DNA from: Peribolospora baueri
Lineage: Eukaryota; Basidiomycota; Peribolosporomycetes; Peribolosporales; Peribolosporaceae
DNA length: 64,000 nucleotides
NCBI GenBank assembly: GCA_029717555.1
Contig: JAMDHS010000021.1
Span: forward strand, 124,001 to 188,000
Direction of reading: 5' to 3'
Made by a program: the position numbers and the translations under genes. Below, piece after piece: positions 45,927 through 58,925 of the stretch (its first letter is position 1; every line of letters starts with the position of its first letter). The notes below the pieces were generated by a model. It ran no database searches, was not told the DNA's origin, and was given only the letters and a program-made list of their open reading frames with translations.

Positions 45927-48900
45927 TCAAAGCATCTTTTTCCCCCTCTCGTCCGCCTCGAGCGCCAGCCCGACGTCCTCCTCCGACACGCCATACAAGC
46001 TCACCCTAGCCCCATCGCCTGCTCTGCCCGGCTCGGCGAGGACGGCGCGGAGAGCGGTGAGCGAGGCAAGCACGCGCGAGAGGTCGCAAGGTGTCGGGAG
46101 GGGAGTGAGCGCGTGCAGGCGAGAGAGGGACAGGTGAACCGAAACGACCTGTGCGTGACCAAGTTACGCGCGTATCATGCGTCCGAGAAGGGCAGTCGAG
46201 TCAGCGACAGAAGGACAAGACCAGACTGGCAGCGTCCGACAGGACCCACCTCGCCCCATCTTACCCCCTCGCCTGTCCCCTCCTTCCTCATGGCCCTCAT
46301 GATCGCGAGCAACAGCACCTTCTGATGAATGCCCAACTTCGTCAGGTGCGCCACCTTAGTGCTCTTGACCATCTCCGCAAACACTCTCGTAGCGTCCTTG
46401 ATCGTCACCTTCCTCGAAGCCGGCGCGGCCCCGTCCGCCCCGGCCGAGACGAGCTCCACCGCGCGCCGGCACACGTCCAACGCCTTTCGAGCGTCTCCGC
46501 TCACATTGCTCACCCGCTTGGCGACGTACGTGACGGCGACGGGATCGAAGAGTGTCCCAGCCACCTTCTTATCCATCTCCTCGTCTGTCATCTTCGACAT
46601 GACCGTCGATGATATGCCAGCAGAGCCGAAGGAGACCGCTGCGCGGAGACGAGACTGGACGATAGATGCCAGCTGCGAGTCTGTGTATGGTTGGAATGGA
46701 ATGCGCACCATGCCTTTTGCCGAGACCATTCGAAACGAGACGGGTGCGGCGCCCAGCGAAGAGGAGGACAGAAAGGAACAGACAATTATACGTACCTGAT
46801 CGTCAGACGCTCTATCCCCGTGCATTTAAAACGAAAAATGTTCACCATAACGGTCAACCTCTCACTCACCCAATCGGCTCGCAACTTTCTGGTTGAGCAC
46901 CCTCTCGGGCAAGTCCATCGTATTGGCGACGGCTACGACGACGAGACGCGAGTGGGCCAGGTTGGGCCAGTTGAAAAAGTTGTACATGACGTCTTGTTTC
47001 GCCGTCACCAGCTGGTCCAGCTCGTCCATTAGCACGACGCTGGTAGCAGACAATCAATGTGGAAGCAGAGCAGGGAGCAGGGCGCGGAGAGCGGAACGGG
47101 GGTAAGAGAGAGCGCAAGGAGGTCAGTCGATTGTGGCTCGGTCTTTGCATCGAAAGCTAAAACATGACTCCGCCCGCTCACCAAGCGTGCCTACCAGGCC
47201 CCCTCCTCTCAAAGTGCTTCTCCAACAGTCCGAGTGCATGCTTGGGTGTCACCCTGTCTCCACCGCTAAGGCTCTCCCACAATAATGAATAGGCTTGCGC
47301 GGGGTCAGAGACCTTCATGCCGTTGATCTCGACAAAGTTGAACGGGTTGATCTCCTGTGCACGTCCAAAGAAGACGCAGAATACGATTTTCAATCAAGAA
47401 AACAGAGAGATACTGAGAACTGAGAAAGTTAAATGAAGACGTGCGACACACCTGTCGCTCCGCCTTTTCGTGAAGGGCTCGCACTACTTCTCGTACCGTT
47501 GCTGTCTTCCCGGTCCCTGGGACGCCGGAAATATCTATGGCACAGAGCAGGTCAAGGGGCCAGCCTTTGTAGTTAGCAGTGAGACCAGAACCAGCCGCGC
47601 TCCTTCCTTCCGATGCCTCACTCACAAATACAACCCCCTTCGCCCATCTCCACAGCATCCTCTAAATGTGCCATCACCTCCTCGTACTCGTCCTCCCGAC
47701 ACGGTAACGTCTCGGGCGTCGCGCCGACGTGGAGAAGTGCTTTGGCTCGGTCGTGCAAGGAGAGCTTCGTGAGAGAGGTTGAGAGAAGCAGGCGGCGCAT
47801 TGGGAAGGTGACTGTGTTTGTTGCACGTTGCAGGCTGCTAACCAAAAGGGAAGTTTCCAGTCAATGGACATCTAAGTCTCCACGCGGTTGCTCGGCCGTT
47901 CTCAGCGACGAGGAACGATCGTTTCACCTGAAACGTTTTCGAGCCTTGAGCGCTCTCCTGCTTCTCGGCGTCGGCCTGGCCTTGACAGGACTGCTCAAAG
48001 CCGACCTCTTCCTCGTTCCAGGAAGTTTGTTTCTGCCTCGCTTCCGCTTTGAAGGTGTCCTCGGCCCAACACCATCGTCCACGCTGCCTTCCATCTCCGC
48101 TTCGTCCGGTATGTCGTTCTCGCTCGCGAGTCCATCGTCGACGGGGGCTGCTGCAAATTCGTCCTCGCTTTCCTCATCCTCCGAGGAGGATGAGGATGCG
48201 TGTTCGTCCAAGTCAGATTCGCTCAGAGACTCCAGACTGATCTGCACCGTCTTTCGTCTCTTGCTCGGCGTCTCAGGCTCGACGGTGGAGGTGTTTCTCC
48301 CTTTCTGGGGGGACCTCGCCACTACCCCAACGACATCCGGCTTTTCACTCTCCACTGCGTCCTTCAAATCCCACCTTCCACCTTCGATTCCTCTCTTCAG
48401 AGCCTTCTCCCAGTCGAAGACGAACCAGAGGCCCTTCTGATCGTCCACCGCTCTGTTGCACACCAAATCGATAGGAAAATGCTTGCCTTGGTGTCTGATC
48501 GTCCGCCCAGCAAACGTTGCTTGCCTTCGCCTCGCGCTACCTTTGCCGAGAGCCACCCTCTTCGCCTTGCCTTTCCGGCCCAAGTCGCGCTCGGAGACGG
48601 CCGCTTCAAAGGCTTCAGCGGTGGGGAAGACGGTGCATTTTGACAGGATATCGCTGATCGGCACGTTCTCGTAGACGGGACTGTTGGTCTGCGACGGCAT
48701 TCGCTCATCTGTTTCATCAGCTAAAGGAGAAGCGGCAGCCGGGGCGGCCGCCGAATTGGAGTCGACGGTAGCAGGGGAACCTGAGTGCTTAGCGGACTGC
48801 TTCTCCGGTGTGTCAAAGTTGAGGGAGCGCGGGTTGTTCACCACACCGGCCTTCGCTGAATTGCGAGAGCGGCGAGTGGAGATATGCGATACCTTGTGGT

Positions 48901-49882: not shown

Positions 49883-51686
49883 TCAGATTAGCATGTCCTG
49901 TCGTCCCTGATCAGTACCCACCAGTTGAAGAATGCTTGCTCGTTGATCAGGGGGCAAGTTGTTAATCTGCTCCGGGGTGAGCTGTAGGACTTGCATGAGG
50001 AGTTGCTAGAAAAATCGAGAAGAGAACCAAGACGGGGAAGCGTGAGTACAAGTACGGCCGAACAGCCAGGGCAGCGCGCGTGTTGGTCGGCCAAGCCCTC
50101 TCAAGTAAAGGACATCGATCTCCTACCCTGTGCTGCTCCTGTTGCAACTGCGGCTGATTCTGCGCCGGTGGAGGCTGGGCTTGCGCCTGTGGAGGTGTGC
50201 TAACGTGCTGTGGTGGTGGGGGCGCAAGAGCCGCGCCACCGTATCCCACACCGACCGGCGGAGTGCCGTACCCGGCCACAGCGGCTTGAGGAGGCATAGG
50301 CGGGGGGCCGGGAGGGGCGCCGGGGGCGGCACCTGGGCGGTTACGCGGGTCACGCGGGTCCATGTTGGGTACCGGTGGACGCGGCGCAGCGGCGGCAGGT
50401 CCCGGAGGCGTGGCGTAAGAAGGGGTAGGTCCAGGGCCTGGCTGAGGTGCTGGTGCCGATGTGGCGGCGGAGGCGGAGGCGGCGAGGATTCGCTGCGAGA
50501 TATGAAGAGCAGTCGAGAAGACGAGGAAGCAAGTCGGCATGTGATGATAGAGCTGGTCAATAAGAGCTTCTTATACAATTTCTATCGTCTTCACTAGGAA
50601 AGAGACGAGCCGCACCCACCTGCAGAATAGAAGAATCCACTACGTTCATCATAAGCATGGCCTGAAAGAGCGCGTACGCGAGTTGAGGGTGGGCGCTCAG
50701 CAAAGCTCGCGCCTGCTCAGGTGAGGTCATCACGAGCGACTGAAGGAAAGAGAGCGGAATGAGCGATGACAATTCTCCGAGAAGAACCGTCCAATACACA
50801 TTCAGAAAAAAGGCAGCACATATGTTCTCACCTTCATTTGACTCATGATATCCAACAGCTGATTCGGGGGCATGTTGGCCAACGTATTTGTGATGCTGTC
50901 CGTGGCCTTGACGCCCGGCGGAACGGGGATGCCCATCGGCAAGCCCGGGGGCAACACTCCATGGTCACCTCCTCCACCACCGCCGCCATGTCTGTGCGGC
51001 CCGCCGCCTCCGCGAAAGTCTCCCCGGCCGTCTCTTCGCACATAGTCTCGCGGAGGCGCGTAGTCCGAGTCGATGAACTGGCCCATGGACGTGGTTTTGC
51101 CTTCGTGCAAGGGGTGCGTCTCTGCAAAGTCGATTCGTAGCGGTCGGCCGCCCACGTCGACGTCATTCAAGTTTCGCACCGCTGATGCGGCCGTCTCTGG
51201 GTCTGTATGGAAGGTTAGAAGACAGAAGGCATTGGTTAAGGGCGGAGATGAGGGCGTGCGTGCGAAAAGGCCGCTTTTAGATTCAACAGAGGGACGGAAA
51301 ACCTGCTCACCCAAGAATTCGCAAAACCCATACCCCTTCGGCTTTCCTGAATCTCGATCAAAGACGAGTCTGTATGGACGAGAGGAATCCCTGATGAGTT
51401 CCTTGGCACTACCCGTCGATCCGCCAGGATGGGGCGACTCAAGAAGCTTGTGGCATCCCAACAAGCCTCCAATACACGTCGACGCGAGAGCACTGACCGA
51501 AATCCAGCCACAGGGCCAACCTCGCGAAAGACGTGAATGAGCTGCTCCTCGGACATATCGTAGGGGATATTCCCCACTGAGCACCCAGGAGGGAACCGAG
51601 ACGAGAGGAGACAATTGCCAGAAGAAAAGCGAAAGCGTGGGTGAGTTACCAGTTGCCCCCGATTGCAAAAATGTCCGCTCGCTCAT
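49883..51686 (-). CDS. Cleavage stimulation factor 64 kDa subunit (CstF-64 / Rna15)
   Basis: This pre-mRNA 3'-end processing factor binds the GU-rich downstream element. The start at 51686 (MSERTFLQSGAT) splices into VGNIPYDMSEEQLIHVFREV, the RNP2 strand of an N-terminal RRM. RNP1 is KGYGFCEFL and the RRM ends VGGRPLRIDFAETHP. A Gly/His-rich linker follows, then the CSTF2 hinge that binds CstF-77: LANMPPNQLLDIMSQMK, SPEQARALLSAHPQLAYALF and QAMLMMNVVDSSILQ. A Pro/Ala/Gln-rich region leads to the short C-terminal three-helix domain QVLQLTPEQINNLPPDQRA ending at 49883-49885. All three family parts are present. About six or seven exons. It is head-to-head with PFD1, only 267 bases apart. Confidence 0.93.
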
Positions 51687-51953
51687 CTCTTCTTCCAAAC
51701 GTGCTATTTTCCTCACCGAACACGACCTTGGATCCCCTGGATGCGATGGTCATCCTCGACTTTAGAACGACGGAGCGGAACGAAGATGAGAGGAGAACAG
51801 GAGGATGGAGGAAGACAAAGAGGCGAGCCAGTGGTCGAAGTCGATCGCACGCGAGTTGCTGCGGCACCGAATTTGGACTTCGATCGAGAGCGCCTTGGCA
51901 GCCTGCAGCCGGCGACGACGACGTGGACGATAGCACGTCGCTCGCACACCACC
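51687..51953. promoter_or_regulatory. Compact bidirectional promoter, CstF-64 / PFD1
   Basis: 267 bases between opposed start codons, the tightest divergent pair in the window. There is no clear TATA box. Confidence 0.55.
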
Positions 51954-52681
51954 ATGGCTTCAATTCCAGACGACACTCTTCGGAAGGCACGTTGGGCAAC
52001 CGTCTCAGTCCCAGTTCAAGCTTGTTGCTGAGCCCACTTGCTTACACTGTTCTCCATCTTCCGGTGAACAGGTGCTCCAACAACTCCAGCAGCAGGTGGT
52101 GTCGTCGCAGAAGCAGCTCGTAGGCGTGCGGGCGCAGATGCAGGCCAAGGAAAGGGATAGGCGGCTGACTCAGCTCACGTTGAAAGAGCTCGAGGGGATT
52201 CAGAAGGAAGATAAGGACGTAAAAGTGTACAAGGGTGTGGGCAAGATGTGAGTCTTCCGTTTGCGAGCAGCGCGCTTGTGTGCCTAGGGCATGCAAGGGC
52301 GCCTGTCTCAATTCTGACAGCGTTATTGCATTCTCACTGGATCATCTTCCATTCCGAATTTGCACAACTGCACTGTCTAGGTTCATGCAAGAACAGGCGC
52401 CCTCGATCGTGGCGGAGCTGGAGAAGAAGGAGAAGGAGCTCGCAGACGACTTGAACAACCTGCAAAAGAAGGCAAAGGTAAGGTTTTGGCCCACCAAGCT
52501 TTAATTTACCGTCCCGGTCCGTCAACATAAAATTACAGCGTGTCGTCGACAGTTGTCTTGCCCCCTACTGAACATGTGCTCGTCTCTGTTTCAGTACCTT
52601 GAAAAGGCATTCAACGAAGCCCAAGGCAACCTTCGCGACATCTTCCGTTCCGTCGAGATTCAGCAAGCACAGCGAGCATAA
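51954..52681 (+). CDS. PFD1: Prefoldin subunit 1 (beta-type)
   Basis: This subunit of the hexameric prefoldin co-chaperone passes unfolded actin and tubulin to CCT. Exons 51954-51986, 52072-52247, 52381-52477 and 52595-52681 give 130 residues, exactly in frame. The two-coiled-coil fold shows as LQQLQQQVVSSQKQLVGVRA, the beta-hairpin region VKVYKGVGKMFMQEQ, and EKKEKELADDLNNLQKKAKY. The first intron seems to start with GC (AAG|GCACGT, 51987). The nearest alternative in the same phase uses GTCTCA further on and adds five residues (ARWAT). The length matches the family (about 110-130). Confidence 0.9.
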
Positions 52682-53293
52682 GGCGTTGCGCGAAGCGTAG
52701 CGAGGACTAGGCAGCATAGGAAAGCGTCGGGAGCTCCGATCTTTTGGTCTCGCTTCGGGCATGCTCACAGGCGACCCATAAGGATGGCCGCTATGTACAT
52801 ATACCTTCGCCATCAAGAGATCATCAGGTTGCATGCGCGCGTCTTTGCCTCTTCCTTCCCTCATCCATCATCCGTTCCTTGTCGGTACTGCTGCTCCATC
52901 AGACACAAGCCGCTCAAGGGGAACCTTGTGGCAGGTCCCCAGTGCATAGGAGGACGACAGGCCCACTGCCTTCGTACCGAGTGTCAGGTCAATCAACAGG
53001 CGGCACTGAAAGCGGGCACATGAGCACATTCAGGACCGTGTCAGATTAGGGTTGCGGTTGGTTCCCACGACGGCGCGCCACCGCGGCTGCGGCCGATCTC
53101 CAGGCCGGGCTCAGGATGGCGGCGTCCATGACGACCGACCTTCGTCCGAGATCACTGGAGGCGGTAATCTCTTCCTTCTTCCACCTCCTTCTCCTCCTCA
53201 GATACCTTTGCTCTCCCAACCACCCCGCATTACGATTGTTCCTTTCCTTCTGCCTTTGGTTGCTCCGGTGATTGCAGCTGACCTTTGCGCAAT
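52682..53293. other. Intergenic, PFD1 3' side and ARP3 promoter
   Basis: 612 bases in tandem orientation. A pyrimidine-rich stretch near 53165-53215 lies close to the ARP3 start and could be promoter or 5' leader intron. No coding sequence is seen. Confidence 0.45.
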
Positions 53294-55812
53294 ATGTCTA
53301 AGAGCAATGTGATCGTGCTGTGAGTTGTTTTGACGTGTATGCGGGAACAGCGGAGATACAGTGCCTTTCGGGCACCGACTGACTTTGGCTGTTTCTCTGA
53401 CATCCTACGCGTTCGATCTGGACATGGACATGCAGCGACGTGAGCTGTCTCGTTTGTTGAAATTTCGTCTGCCGTACACCGGGTGGTCTGAACTGACCCT
53501 GTTCCTGTGCTGCTGTCCTGGGCCCTATCTCCGAACAGAATGGCACGGGCTACACGAGTGCGTGTTTTCTGCTTTCTATTGCTAAGTGCGACGATAACTC
53601 ATGTTGTACCCTTTGTTTCGCGCTCGATGGTTTGCCTCACTGCCGTGCCGCTCCGTAGAGATGGGGTGAGCCACGCTTTCCGTTCTCGTCCGAACCATTT
53701 GCGAGATGTTGCTGACCTTGGCGACGGTGAACGCCCCTTTCAGCTTTGCGGGTAACTCCGACCCCTCATTTGTGTTTCCCACCGCCATCGCCACGCGCGA
53801 TGCCTCCGGCGGCTCTTCCACCGTCCGTCCTGGCTCTCGTCCCTCCGTGCCCGGCAAGCCCTCCTCCATGTCCTCTAACCTCGCCTCTAAGCGCGGCATC
53901 GACGACCTCGACTTCTTCATTGGCCACGAGGCACACGCCAACTCTAAGACGTACACTGTCGATTACCCCATCCGGCACGGGCTGATTGAGAACTGGGACT
54001 TGATGGAGCGGTTCTGGGAGCAGTGCATCTTTAAGTACCTCAGGGCGGAGCCAGAAGACCACTATTTCCTGCTGGTGAGTTGGACGTGGCACACGGGTCA
54101 CAGGACGTAGCATGGAATAGGTACCGGGAGAGCTTCGATGCGCGGAGCCGATTGCGAAGGAGTAATCCCCTGCGATGCTTACACCCGTCTTCATCGCCTT
54201 TGGCCCACCCGGTTTCCCTCCAGACCGAACCGCCCCTGAACCCTCCGGAGAACCGAGAAAACACGGCAGAGATCATGTTTGAGTCGTTCAATATCGCCGG
54301 CCTGTACATCGCCGTCCAAGCTGTGCTCGCCCTCGCCGCGTCGTGGTCGAGCAGCAAGGTGGTGGATCGTACACTTACGGGCACAGTAATTGACTCTGGT
54401 GACGGCGTCACCCACGTAATTCCTGTTGTGAGTGGGACATCTATAGGACGTTGGATGGGGCATCAGTTGCTTTGAGCACCAAATGCCTGATCTCTCGACC
54501 TTTGCCGCTTGTCTCCCCTATCACCGATCCCGTCAGGCCGAGGGCTATGTGATCGGATCAGCGATCAAGCACATTCCCATCGCCGGCCGTGATATCACCT
54601 ACTTTGTTCAACAGCTGCTCCGCGAACGAGGCGAAGCGGCCAACATACCCCCGGAGGACTCGCGGAGGGTGGCGGAAAAGATCAAAGAGGATTACAGCTA
54701 CGTCTGTCAGGACATTGTCAAGGAGTTCCGCAAGTACGACGCCGATCCTTACAAGTACTTTGAGCGGTATGAGGGCGAGCATGCCGTCACGGGCCGGGTG
54801 AGTACGAGTGGACGTCCACGGTCGTGGTTTACCTGTGGCATCTGCTGAAACTCCTATACTTTCCCTGCCCGCCGATGCGCAGAAATACACCGTAGACGTC
54901 GGCTACGAGCGTTTCCTCGCGCCAGAGATCTTCTTCAACCCGGAGATTGCCTCGTCGGACTTTTTGACGCCTTTGCCCGAGGTCGTCGACGGTGTGATTC
55001 AGAACTCGCCTATCGACGTTCGAAGAGGACTTTACAAGGTCAGTGTGCGGAGAGGGATGGTGGTGACGGCGCAGGAGGCGTCGCGGAGGCTTCTCGCTCA
55101 CGCGTGAATTTCTGGCTGCCTTTTCCAAACCAAAACGATCTACTTCGTACAGAACATTGTCCTCTCTGGTGGTTCGACGATGTTCACCCATTTCGGACAG
55201 CGGCTGAAGAAGGACCTGAAGGAGATTGTCGACAACCGGCTGGTCGCTAGCGAGGTGGCCAGCGGGGGCGGCATGAAGGTCGGTTGATGCGTTGCGTTTG
55301 CGTCGATGCGATCGACCGGGTTGCGCTGAGTGTGGTGATTTCTTACTCGCTCACAGAGCTCTGGTATCGAAGTCAACGTGATCTCCCACAAGAAGACGCG
55401 GTACGCTGTCTGGTTCGGAGGATCGCTGTTGGGAAGCTTGGTGAGTCTTTGTCTGGTGCCTCCCCTTTTTCGTTGGTCGAACCGGTTTGAAGTGGGCATA
55501 GACGGGTGGATGAATTGGTGGAAAGGACTCGGACTGATTTTGCTTTTTTCGCTTTTCTTCCGCGTTCGGCGACGCACGAACAATAGCCCGAGTTCTACAA
55601 CTTTTGCTACAGCAAGGCGGACTATGAAGAGGTGAGTTGGCGAGCGGGGAGACGGAAAGGGCCGGAATGGAGGGGCCCCGCTGGACCACATGGCTCACTC
55701 GTTCACTCACCCGGCCACCGGCGCGGTATCTCTATCTGTGTCTGTGTCTTTGTCTCTGCGATAGCACGGTCCGTCCATCTGCCGTCGTTACTCCATCTTC
55801 GGAGCCGTCTGA
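53294..55812 (+). CDS. ARP3: Actin-related protein 3 (Arp2/3 complex)
   Basis: This core actin-like subunit of the Arp2/3 complex nucleates branched actin. I read twelve exons: 53294-53319, 53436-53439, 53539-53557, 53659-53665, 53744-54074, 54224-54427, 54537-54797, 54883-55038, 55153-55278, 55357-55440, 55587-55631 and 55765-55812. They sum to 1311 bases and 436 residues, exactly in frame and of family length. The first four exons (26, 4, 19, 7 bases) give [19 protein letters not shown], the phosphate-1 loop of actins, joined to [13 protein letters not shown]. Further blocks are [86 protein letters not shown] and the end [15 protein letters not shown]. Confidence 0.95.
53436..53439 (+). other. 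Proposed 4-base microexon of ARP3
   Basis: Between GCAG and GTGAGC lie only the four bases CGAC. Joined to exon 1 (ending GTGCT) and exon 3 (starting AAT) they give GTG-CTC-GAC-AAT, coding VLDN, as the actin fold requires. CTGAC branch candidates sit at 53397-53401 and 53493-53497. Confidence 0.75.
53659..53665 (+). other. Proposed 7-base microexon of ARP3
   Basis: Between CGTAG and GTGAGC lie AGATGGG. With the A left from the 19-base exon and the C opening exon 5 it gives AAG-ATG-GGC, coding KMG before FAGNSDPSF. Without it the frame is lost. Confidence 0.82.
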
Positions 55813-57319: not shown

Positions 57320-58925
57320 ATGGCCGCCGCTCAGGAGAAGATTCTCACCGTCCCCAAGGACCACAACGCCGCCATCTTTGACAAGCCGGTGAGCGACCGC
57401 CGTTTTGCCGATGCTTTCTGCTTCTCGTCGCATCGACCCGCTCACGCTCCTCCTCCACATCCAATCGAATTCCATCCCATCCCATCACAGGGCGGTCCCG
57501 TCTCCGTGCGCACCGTGCCCGTCGTCCAGCAGAAGGACCTCAAGGTCGGCGAGGCGCTCGTCAAGGTCCTCTACACCGGCGTGTGCCACACCGACCTCCA
57601 CGCCATGCTGTGCGTCGCCGTCGTGTCGTCCTAGTCGTGTCACGTCATTCGCTCCCATTCACCTGCCCTCTTTCCTCCGTTCACAGCGGCGACTGGCCCC
57701 TGCCGACCAAGCTCCCTCTCGTCGGCGGCCACGAAGGCGCCGGCGTGATCGTGGCCATCAACGACAACACGCCCACGCACCTCAAGATCGGCGACCGCGT
57801 GGGCATCAAGTGGCTCGCTGACTCTTGTCTGCATTGCGAGTTTTGTCGCAAGGGCTTCGAGCCCGTGTGTCCCGAGGCGAAGAACTCGGGCTATACCGTC
57901 GACGGCTCGTTCCGTGAGTGTTCATCGTTGGACCGGACGCGCTTTCTTCTTCGCACTCCACTCATTCCATCCGGCCCTTCCTTCCCCACAGAGCAATTCG
58001 CCGTCTCTTACACGGACCACCTCACCCTCATCCCGGACAACGTGCCCCTCCAGGAGGCCGCACCGGTCCTCTGCGCCGGCGTGACCGTCTACAAGGCCAT
58101 CAAGGAGACCAAGGCCACGCCGGGAGACTGGATCGTCATTCCCGGAGCCGGAGGCGGCTTGGGCCACCTGGCCGTCCAGTACGCGCGCTACGTCGGTCTG
58201 CGAGTCATCGCCGTCGACACGGGCGCCGAAAAGAAAAAACTCACCGAGGAGCTTGGCGCGGAGGCGTGGATCGACTTTAAGGAGACTAAGGATATTGTCA
58301 GCGAGGTTAAAAAGATCGCGGATGGCCTTGGATCCCACTGCGCACTCGTCGCCGCTGCCAGCCCCGGAGCATACGAGCAGGCGCTCGAATACCTCAGGCC
58401 GTTTGGCACGCTCGTCGCCGTCGGCTTGGGCGCCGGCGCGGAGGTCAAAGCGTGAGTCGGACGAGGAGGAGAGTCGGACGGTTAGTCCGGTCACTCGCGC
58501 TCAACCTTTCCATGCCCCTGCCTTTCCGTTTCGACAGCAACGTCTTCTGGACCGTTTTGAGAGGTGTGTTCCCCCTTTTGTCCGCCCCCTCCTCTCGCCG
58601 CCGCTCGCCGCTCACCTGATCTTCTCCCCCGTTGCTTTTACTCTCCCCGCCGCGACCGACCCAAAGGCATTCGCGTCGTCGGCAGCATTGTCGGAAACCG
58701 CCAGGACGCGGTCGAGGCGCTCGACATTGTCTCCAGGGGACACGTCAAGACGTTCTACAAGGTCCTTCCCATGTCCCAGCTGCCCCAGGTCTTTGAGGTC
58801 AGTTCGGCCGTTTTGCTGAGCGCTTAGCCTGGCGCCGGACTGAACCGACTTGCCTCCCTTCCTTCCTCTAGGACATGCACCAAGGAAAGCTCGTCGGCCG
58901 TATCGTCCTGGACAACTGGAAGTGA
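57320..58925 (+). CDS. Zinc alcohol dehydrogenase (ADH1-type)
   Basis: This cytosolic tetrameric-type fungal alcohol dehydrogenase interconverts ethanol and acetaldehyde with NAD. The start MAAAQEKILTVPKDHNAAIF follows a TATA-box promoter. Exons join VLYTGVCHTDLHAM (catalytic zinc Cys and His) to GDWPLPTKLPLVGGHEGAGV (the GHE signature). Structural-zinc cysteines lie in CLHCEFCRKGFEPVC. The NAD loop is IPGAGGGLGHLAVQYARYVG. The end is GRIVLDNWK. Seven or eight short introns, including a very short exon NVFWTVLR. No presequence is visible, so it is cytosolic. The sequence agrees with yeast Adh1 block by block. Confidence 0.95.

What the first reader, a model, noticed from the sequence alone, without database searches (positions are those of the whole stretch)
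53294..53750. ARP3 start split into exons of 26, 4, 19 and 7 bases
Seen: only by using the 4-base exon CGAC and the 7-base exon AGATGGG do the splice sites yield the actin phosphate loop (VLDNGTGYTKMG) and a full 1311-base frame. All flanks are AG before and GTGAG/GTGCG after, and introns 1, 2 and 4 carry CTGAC branch candidates. Known: the DNGTG loop is essential in actin-fold proteins. Inference: the spliceosome here must define a 4-base exon, near the lower limit known, so splicing may be stepwise (recursive), with removal of part of the introns first.
Basis: partly seen in the sequence, partly recalled or inferred. Interest (0 to 1): 0.75.

Follow-up and report, generated by a model that had tools for sequence, protein, structure and literature searches.

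The report
Fungal ARP3 gene with micro-exon start
The start of a fungal gene for the actin-related protein Arp3 is chopped into very small coding pieces, one only four letters long, which the cell must join exactly; such micro-exons are already known elsewhere, so this is a well-supported but ordinary example of a known kind.

Summary
Exons of 26, 4, 19 and 7 bases at 53294-53319, 53436-53439, 53539-53557 and 53659-53665, plus eight more, give a 1311-base frame for a 436-residue Arp3. A spliced alignment to an unnamed relative picks exactly these exons; banning exons under 5 or under 8 bases costs much score. Of 19 frame-restoring exons between exons 1 and 3, only CGAC puts Asp before NGTG, as in 107 of 107 readable homologues among 120 listed. 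The four introns are ordinary in length, each with a branch-site candidate. The spliced alignment of the genome's actin gene also starts with exons of 7 and 14 bases. Weak points: no transcript, no relative's DNA, and the acceptor before CGAC is weaker than all 24 comparison acceptors. Four bases is not near the limit: constitutive 4-base (human MPC1) and 1-base (Arabidopsis, Fusarium) exons are published. Strict recursive splicing is not supported (no AG|GT inside introns 1-4); one-at-a-time removal of short introns by intron definition is likely. New member of a known kind, moderate interest.

The parts
53294..53319 (+). ARP3 exon 1 (26 nt), codes MSKSNVIV + CT
53320..53435 (+). intron 1 (116 nt), GTGAGT...CAG, CTGAC branch candidates 35 and 53 nt before the exon; weakest acceptor of the set
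53436..53439 (+). ARP3 exon 2 (4 nt, CGAC), completes Leu9 and supplies Asp10
53440..53538 (+). intron 2 (99 nt), GTGAGC...CAG, CTGAC at 42 nt
53539..53557 (+). ARP3 exon 3 (19 nt), NGTGYT + A
53558..53658 (+). intron 3 (101 nt), GTGCGT...TAG, CTCAC at 19 nt; weakest donor of the set
53659..53665 (+). ARP3 exon 4 (7 nt, AGATGGG), KMG
53666..53743 (+). intron 4 (78 nt), GTGAGC...CAG, CTGAC at 28 nt
53744..54074 (+). ARP3 exon 5 (331 nt), first large exon
54224..54427 (+). ARP3 exon 6 (204 nt)
54537..54797 (+). ARP3 exon 7 (261 nt)
54883..55038 (+). ARP3 exon 8 (156 nt)
55153..55278 (+). ARP3 exon 9 (126 nt)
55357..55440 (+). ARP3 exon 10 (84 nt)
55587..55631 (+). ARP3 exon 11 (45 nt)
55765..55812 (+). 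ARP3 exon 12 (48 nt) with stop codon

Best explanation
This is an intact ARP3 gene of a basidiomycete, probably Exobasidiomycetes-like. Its first 56 coding bases are carried on four constitutive exons of 26, 4, 19 and 7 nt. Each surrounding intron is short and is recognised as a unit (intron definition). The introns are removed one after another, because two spliceosomes are unlikely to sit on both sides of a 4-nt exon at once. Once one neighbour is gone, the micro-exon is part of a longer exon and the other intron is ordinary. From site strength I expect introns 2 and 4 to go first (CGAC joined to exon 3, AGATGGG joined to exon 5), then introns 1 and 3. Shown here: anatomy, reading frame, protein identity, splice-site and branch-site quality, and absence of ratchet sites. 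Inferred: constitutive inclusion, the order of removal, and intron definition in this species.
For: Frame and anatomy. Arp3 identity: best solved-structure match 3dwl_A, Actin-related protein 3, E 1.5e-194, aligned from residue 6 through the loop; Pfam Actin 302 bits; best database relative 85% identical with the nearly identical start MSRSNVIVLDNGTGYTKMGFAGN. The spliced alignment picks exactly these exons: 147, against 118 with exons of at least 5 nt and 95 with exons of at least 8 nt. Only 1 of 19 frame-restoring exons (CGAC) fits with a good donor; for exon 4, 1 of 3. Asp precedes the NGTG-type motif in 107 of 107 readable homologues of the 120 listed. All four introns have a CTNAY branch candidate (comparison introns 18 of 24; random 48-mers 0.197) and normal lengths. 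The spliced alignment of the same genome's actin gene starts with exons of 7, 14, 34 and 32 nt (no shuffle control made). Pairwise site sums for introns 1-4 are 5.2, 13.3, 4.8, 15.9. Published models: PMC4674806 (passages: intron definition plus sequential removal), PMC9929638 (one section: separate lariats from both introns around a 4-bp exon).
Against: No RNA evidence. No DNA of a related fungus could be examined: the two collections scanned hold viral and prokaryote contigs, where none was to be expected, and the genome has no relatives here. The acceptor before CGAC scores -5.7, below all 24 leave-one-out acceptors (lowest -1.7), and the donor of intron 3 scores 0.5, below all 24 donors (lowest 4.1). 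With matrices from 22 introns, 16 of 18 local AGs (itself included) and 3200 of 4136 AGs of the window score at least as high as that acceptor. The pair exon 1 to exon 3 that skips CGAC scores 17.0, higher than intron 1 or intron 2, so skipping may be common. With bare GT/AG a fitting 4-nt exon arises by chance in 66 of 4000 shuffles.
Confidence: 0.82

Rival explanations
1. The 4-nt exon is a weak, regulated exon. It is skipped in part of the transcripts, the frame shifts, and a stop at codon 98 sends the RNA to decay, so inclusion of CGAC sets Arp3 dose.
For: Weak acceptor before CGAC. Skip pairing 17.0 against 5.2 and 13.3. Skipping exon 2 alone gives a stop at codon 98; skipping exon 3 or 4 alone also gives early stops (93, 97).
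Against: The skip intron of 219 nt is longer than all 24 comparison introns (74-149 nt). Loss of any coding exon whose length is not a multiple of three tends to give early stops, so this is no sign of regulation. No conservation data.
Confidence: 0.12
2. An unseen different 5' structure supplies the start of the protein, and CGAC is a chance 4-mer.
For: A fitting 4-nt exon with bare GT/AG arises in 66 of 4000 shuffles and the alignment score is matched in 22 of 300. Poor acceptor. In-frame paths without exon 2 exist (such as MSKSN joined to NGTGYTK, donor score 4.5).
Against: Those paths lack VIVLD or VLD, while Asp is present in 107 of 107 readable homologues. With site strengths counted the chance is 1 of 4000, or 14 of 4000 if any exon length ending in Asp is allowed. 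The search of 52681-53900 found no better structure; the best with exons of at least 5 nt scored 118, with an unrelated first exon and still the 7-nt exon.
Confidence: 0.05
3. Recursive splicing in the strict sense, or a spliceosomal twin intron, removes introns 1 and 2 in nested steps.
For: The two introns are separated by only 4 nt; a steric problem for simultaneous assembly is discussed in PMC4674806 (passages).
Against: No AG|GT ratchet site in introns 1-4. Introns are short. A nested removal would delete CGAC and break the frame.
Confidence: 0.03

Closest known systems
Human MPC1 4-bp constitutive micro-exon (PMC9929638; abstract and one section seen)
   Same: 4 nt, not a multiple of three, constitutive, each intron released separately
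   Different: Animal gene; inclusion depends on strong proximal intron elements that act like exon definition, whereas here introns are short and the acceptor is weak
Arabidopsis APC11 1-nt exon and plant micro-exon clusters (PMC4674806, PMC8831610; passages seen)
   Same: Tiny exons inside conserved coding motifs, missed by annotation, adjacent pairs known (rice 5 and 12 nt), 5' ends mis-annotated
Fungal micro-exons: Fusarium CYP621A 1-nt exon (PMC12940212), Phanerochaete P450 exons down to 6 bp (PMC1184071), Trichoderma Xlr2 (PMC11121469); passages seen
   Same: Fungi, micro-exons inside conserved motifs
   Different: Other genes; Xlr2 is alternative, not constitutive; a run of four exons of 26 nt or less was not met in the passages read
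Arp3 of S. pombe and cow (3dwl, 1k8k; species recalled)
   Same: Protein family and phosphate-binding loop
   Different: Exon structure not compared here

Membership tests
Arp3 (actin-related protein 3) | Best match to Arp3 rather than actin across the whole length | tested here: met
   Solved structures: Arp3 chains 650 and 604 bits, best actin 260 bits, among the 60 shown of 159
Arp3 (actin-related protein 3) | Actin domain and first phosphate loop DNGTG-x-T-K | tested here: met
   Pfam Actin residues 3-430; loop aligned to 3dwl_A
Constitutive micro-exon | Internal exon of about 30 nt or less with canonical splice sites and branch sites on both introns | tested here: met
   4, 19 and 7 nt; GT/AG and CTNAY in all four introns; acceptor of intron 1 and donor of intron 3 weak
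Constitutive micro-exon | Included in nearly all mature mRNA | not testable with these tools
   No transcripts of this fungus held; inferred from reading frame only
Constitutive micro-exon | Conserved exon position in relatives | tested here: inconclusive
   No relative's DNA found in the two collections open to search; protein conserved; predicted starts at MGFAGN in 3 homologues hint at trouble at the same place
Recursive splicing | AG|GT ratchet site inside an intron | tested here: not met
   No AGGT in introns 1-4
Spliceosomal twin intron (stwintron) | Inner intron interrupts a splice site of the outer one and no exon is left (definition recalled) | tested here: not met
   CGAC must stay for the frame
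Animal neural micro-exon programme (SRRM3/4, eMIC) | Regulator with SRRM_C domain in the genome | tested here: inconclusive
   PF15230 no match, but no control genome rang either

The most novel reading that the evidence does not exclude
The alternating weak-strong-weak-strong intron strengths (5.2, 13.3, 4.8, 15.9) encode a fixed order of removal that makes a 4-nt and a 7-nt exon spliceable by pure intron definition. The weak acceptor before CGAC makes the frame-shifting exon a throttle on Arp3 output.
Probability: 0.12. Interest if true: 0.6.

Novelty: new member of a known kind. Interest (0 to 1): 0.33.

Why it matters
Tiny exons in a core cytoskeleton gene are easy to miss: 13 of the 120 listed Arp3 homologues lack the complete loop motif (4359 hits in all). 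Three of the 13 are named NCBI entries; most of the rest are unnamed predictions from assembled contigs, for which exon-by-exon calling is another cause. A run of four exons of 26 nt or less in a short-intron fungus is a compact test bed for how intron definition copes with exons too small for two spliceosomes. A 2024 paper calls the identification of micro-exons in fungi relatively limited (PMC11121469, passages).

Tried and rejected
Relatives' DNA: protein-guided scans of viral contigs (6 pattern matches, none confirmed) and prokaryote genome contigs (37 pattern matches, none confirmed) gave no relative. The window's genome has no held relatives and gives no file, and the tools' cap for metagenome scans was 0, so exon positions could not be compared between species.

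Longer exons: allowing only exons of at least 5 (or 7), 8, 12 or 20 nt gave scores 118, 95, 93, 85 against 147. Rejected. The aligner asked only for A, not ATG, as first base; the ARP3 path starts at ATG all the same.

Exon 1 joined straight to exon 3 from an earlier donor (exon 1 ending at 53308 or 53314): in frame but lacks VIVLD or VLD. Rejected because Asp is invariant in the readable homologues.

Strict recursive splicing: no AG|GT in introns 1-4. Rejected.

SRRM_C and U1 RNA searches of the genome were silent, and their controls were silent too, so they prove nothing. FF-domain hits exist (Prp40 as a possible owner is recalled) but were not followed.

The middle part of the Arp2 alignment was badly posed (reference longer than the DNA given). 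Its introns, and the Arp2 intron in that stretch, were left out of the training set. The Arp2 start was also aligned to a second reference (P0244, one residue longer); that path starts at AAC, one codon before the ATG, because the aligner asks only for A. The P0241 version was used.

Papers: ten library searches. One search (microexons, fungi, spliceosom, basidiomycet) found none, and (Arp3, microexon) found two papers whose listed titles and abstracts are unrelated. Seven papers were opened, none in full. In one of them, PMC8022950, the only mention of micro-exons is a read-mapping setting. Absence in print is claimed only for these searches; subscription journals are mostly missing.

Full report
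What is there. The window is part of a 22.1-Mb, 178-contig genome. Joining 53294-53319, 53436-53439, 53539-53557, 53659-53665 and 53744-54074 with seven further exons up to 55812 gives a 1311-nt frame with one stop at the end, coding 436 residues that begin [37 protein letters not shown]. The protein is Arp3: best solved-structure match 3dwl_A (Actin-related protein 3), E 1.5e-194, 650 bits, against 260 bits for the best actin chain shown; Pfam Actin, 302 bits; 85% identity to an unnamed protein and 81-82% to Ceraceosorus, Malassezia and Tilletia proteins. Of the Arp2 matches listed the first is from Tilletiopsis and the fourth from Tilletiaria, with a Marasmius protein third. So the host is a basidiomycete, probably Exobasidiomycetes-like (inference; class of these genera recalled).

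Is the exon structure forced? I aligned the first 37 residues of the relative P0001 without gaps to 52681-53900 (end of the upstream gene into exon 5), allowing any GT-AG introns of 40-400 nt at a fixed cost of 10 each. Allowing only exons of 5 nt or more drops it to 118, with an unrelated upstream first exon and still the 7-nt exon; 8 nt or more drops it to 95. Between exon 1 and exon 3 there are 19 single exons that restore the frame, 5 of them without stops. Only CGAC ends in Asp, directly before NGTG, and only CGAC has a good donor (7.3; the other donors score -1.9 or lower). Between exons 3 and 5 there are 3, and only AGATGGG gives KMG without a stop. Asp stands at this place in 107 of 107 homologues in which the motif can be read; the other 13 of the 120 listed lack the complete motif.

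Chance. With 53180-53741 shuffled (dinucleotides kept), 0 of 300 reach the observed score. With only introns 1 and 2 and exon 2 shuffled, 22 of 300 do; with introns 3 and 4 and exon 4 shuffled, 2 of 300. So the 4-nt exon alone is not very improbable under bare GT/AG. Asking for a Leu-Asp 4-nt exon, 66 of 4000 shuffles have one with bare GT/AG and 1 of 4000 with sites at least as good as the real ones; for any frame-restoring exon ending in Asp with such sites it is 14 of 4000. For exon 4 it is 0 of 4000 with or without site strength. The acceptor threshold is lax because the real acceptor is weak; the donor carries most of this.

Splice sites. Searches use matrices from 22 introns (actin, Arp2, introns 5-11 of this ARP3); searches use 24 (two more from the Arp1-like gene). 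This is a small set from four related genes. Introns 1-4 are 116, 99, 101 and 78 nt (comparison 74-149). All four have CTNAY about 15-60 nt before the acceptor (comparison 18 of 24; random 48-mers 0.197). Donors score 10.9, 7.3, 0.5, 8.0 and acceptors -5.7, 6.0, 4.3, 7.9. The acceptor before CGAC and the donor after exon 3 are weaker than every leave-one-out comparison site, with either pseudocount. Among the 18 AGs at 53180-53800, 16 (itself included) score at least as high as the acceptor before CGAC. Intron sums are 5.2, 13.3, 4.8, 15.9, and the two weak ones lie below the comparison minimum of 8.1; with the heavier pseudocount they are 8.7 and 6.8 against a minimum of 8.8. A direct exon 1 to exon 3 join scores 17.0 but needs a 219-nt intron, longer than any of the 24. 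This is the main evidence against simple constitutive inclusion, and I report it as such.

Setting. The actin gene of the same genome (L009; its long exon matches actins) aligns with a start of exons of 7, 14, 34, 32 and 63 nt, all with GTGAG donors; I made no shuffle control for it. Arp2 starts with 39 and 43 nt. An Arp1-like gene (L011; label from memory, not tested) has a 65-nt second exon and a 57-nt first exon if the ATG that I chose by eye is right. Counted from the Asp of the loop, the introns lie at -1, 0, 7, 9 (Arp3), -8, -4, 8, 18 (actin), 4, 19 (Arp2) and 1, 23 (Arp1-like), and none of these coincide. So the short 5' exons look like separate intron gains crowded at the start of each gene rather than one inherited structure (inference from four genes of one genome). 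The other actin-family loci were not classified.

Mechanism. No intron among 1-4 contains AG|GT, so the ratchet form of recursive splicing has no substrate. Each intron can be recognised end to end. After one neighbour is removed, CGAC sits in a 30-nt (with exon 1) or 23-nt (with exon 3) exon. Removing introns 2 and 4 first is what the site strengths favour. Sequential removal around a 1-nt exon by intron definition is the model in PMC4674806 (passages read), which also cites a potato 9-nt exon whose second intron goes first. For human MPC1, lariats of both introns were seen, and shortening the 4-bp exon to 2, 1 or 0 bp did not stop splicing (PMC9929638, abstract and one section read).

Consequences of failure. 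Losing exon 2, 3 or 4 alone shifts the frame with stops at codons 98, 93 or 97. Retaining intron 1, 2, 3 or 4 stops at codons 10, 17, 50 and 20. Skipping exons 2-4 together (30 nt) keeps the frame, as far as exon 6 where this test ended, but deletes the loop. That this Asp touches the nucleotide's metal ion in actin-fold proteins is recalled, not tested.

Compared with what is known. Micro-exons of 1-15 nt are found in thousands in plants, are often missed, and some are adjacent (5 and 12 nt in rice; PMC8831610, passages). Fungal cases are a 1-nt exon in Fusarium CYP621A with RNA support (PMC12940212, passages), P450 exons down to 6 bp in Phanerochaete (PMC1184071, passages) and Trichoderma Xlr2 (PMC11121469, abstract and passages, which also says that fungal micro-exons are little characterised). 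The present case is a new member: new gene as far as the ten searches show, four exons of 26 nt or less in a row, conserved motif. Nothing in it needs a new mechanism.

Noticed in passing
L009 (G000:C100:39400-42600, minus strand), exons at 913-919, 1054-1067, 1196-1229, 1329-1360 of the reverse complement: The spliced alignment of the actin gene of the same genome also begins with micro-exons (7 and 14 nt, then 34 and 32 nt).
   Followed up: partly
Arp3 homologues P0011, P0012, P0013, P0036, P0057, P0058, P0060, P0061, P0065, P0067, P0083, P0114, P0119: 13 of 120 listed Arp3 homologues lack the complete phosphate-loop motif. Three start at MGFAGN, the ATG that lies inside exon 4 here (Microstroma, Naganishia cerealis and an unnamed one), which may mean missed small exons; seven start at (M/V)FPT and are unnamed contig predictions. 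P0107 (Wallemia) has the motif but lacks FAGN after KMG.
   Followed up: partly
53420-53431: A tandem GGACATGGACAT lies just before the GCAG that ends intron 1 and makes the stretch before the 4-nt exon purine-rich.
   Followed up: no
51800-52681: Upstream + strand gene with a Prefoldin_2 match (27.0 bits, just under the cut-off of 27.6); by reading, its stop is at 52681, 612 bases before the ARP3 start.
   Followed up: partly
57382-58455: Zinc-type alcohol dehydrogenase exon on the + strand downstream.
   Followed up: no
50802-51749 and 46175-46825: Minus-strand open frames with a CSTF2 hinge match and with a Cdc6/ORC-like ATPase lid match.
   Followed up: no
Arp3, actin, Arp2 and the Arp1-like gene of the genome: Intron positions around the first phosphate loop differ in all four paralogues examined, pointing to repeated intron gain at the 5' ends.
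   Followed up: partly
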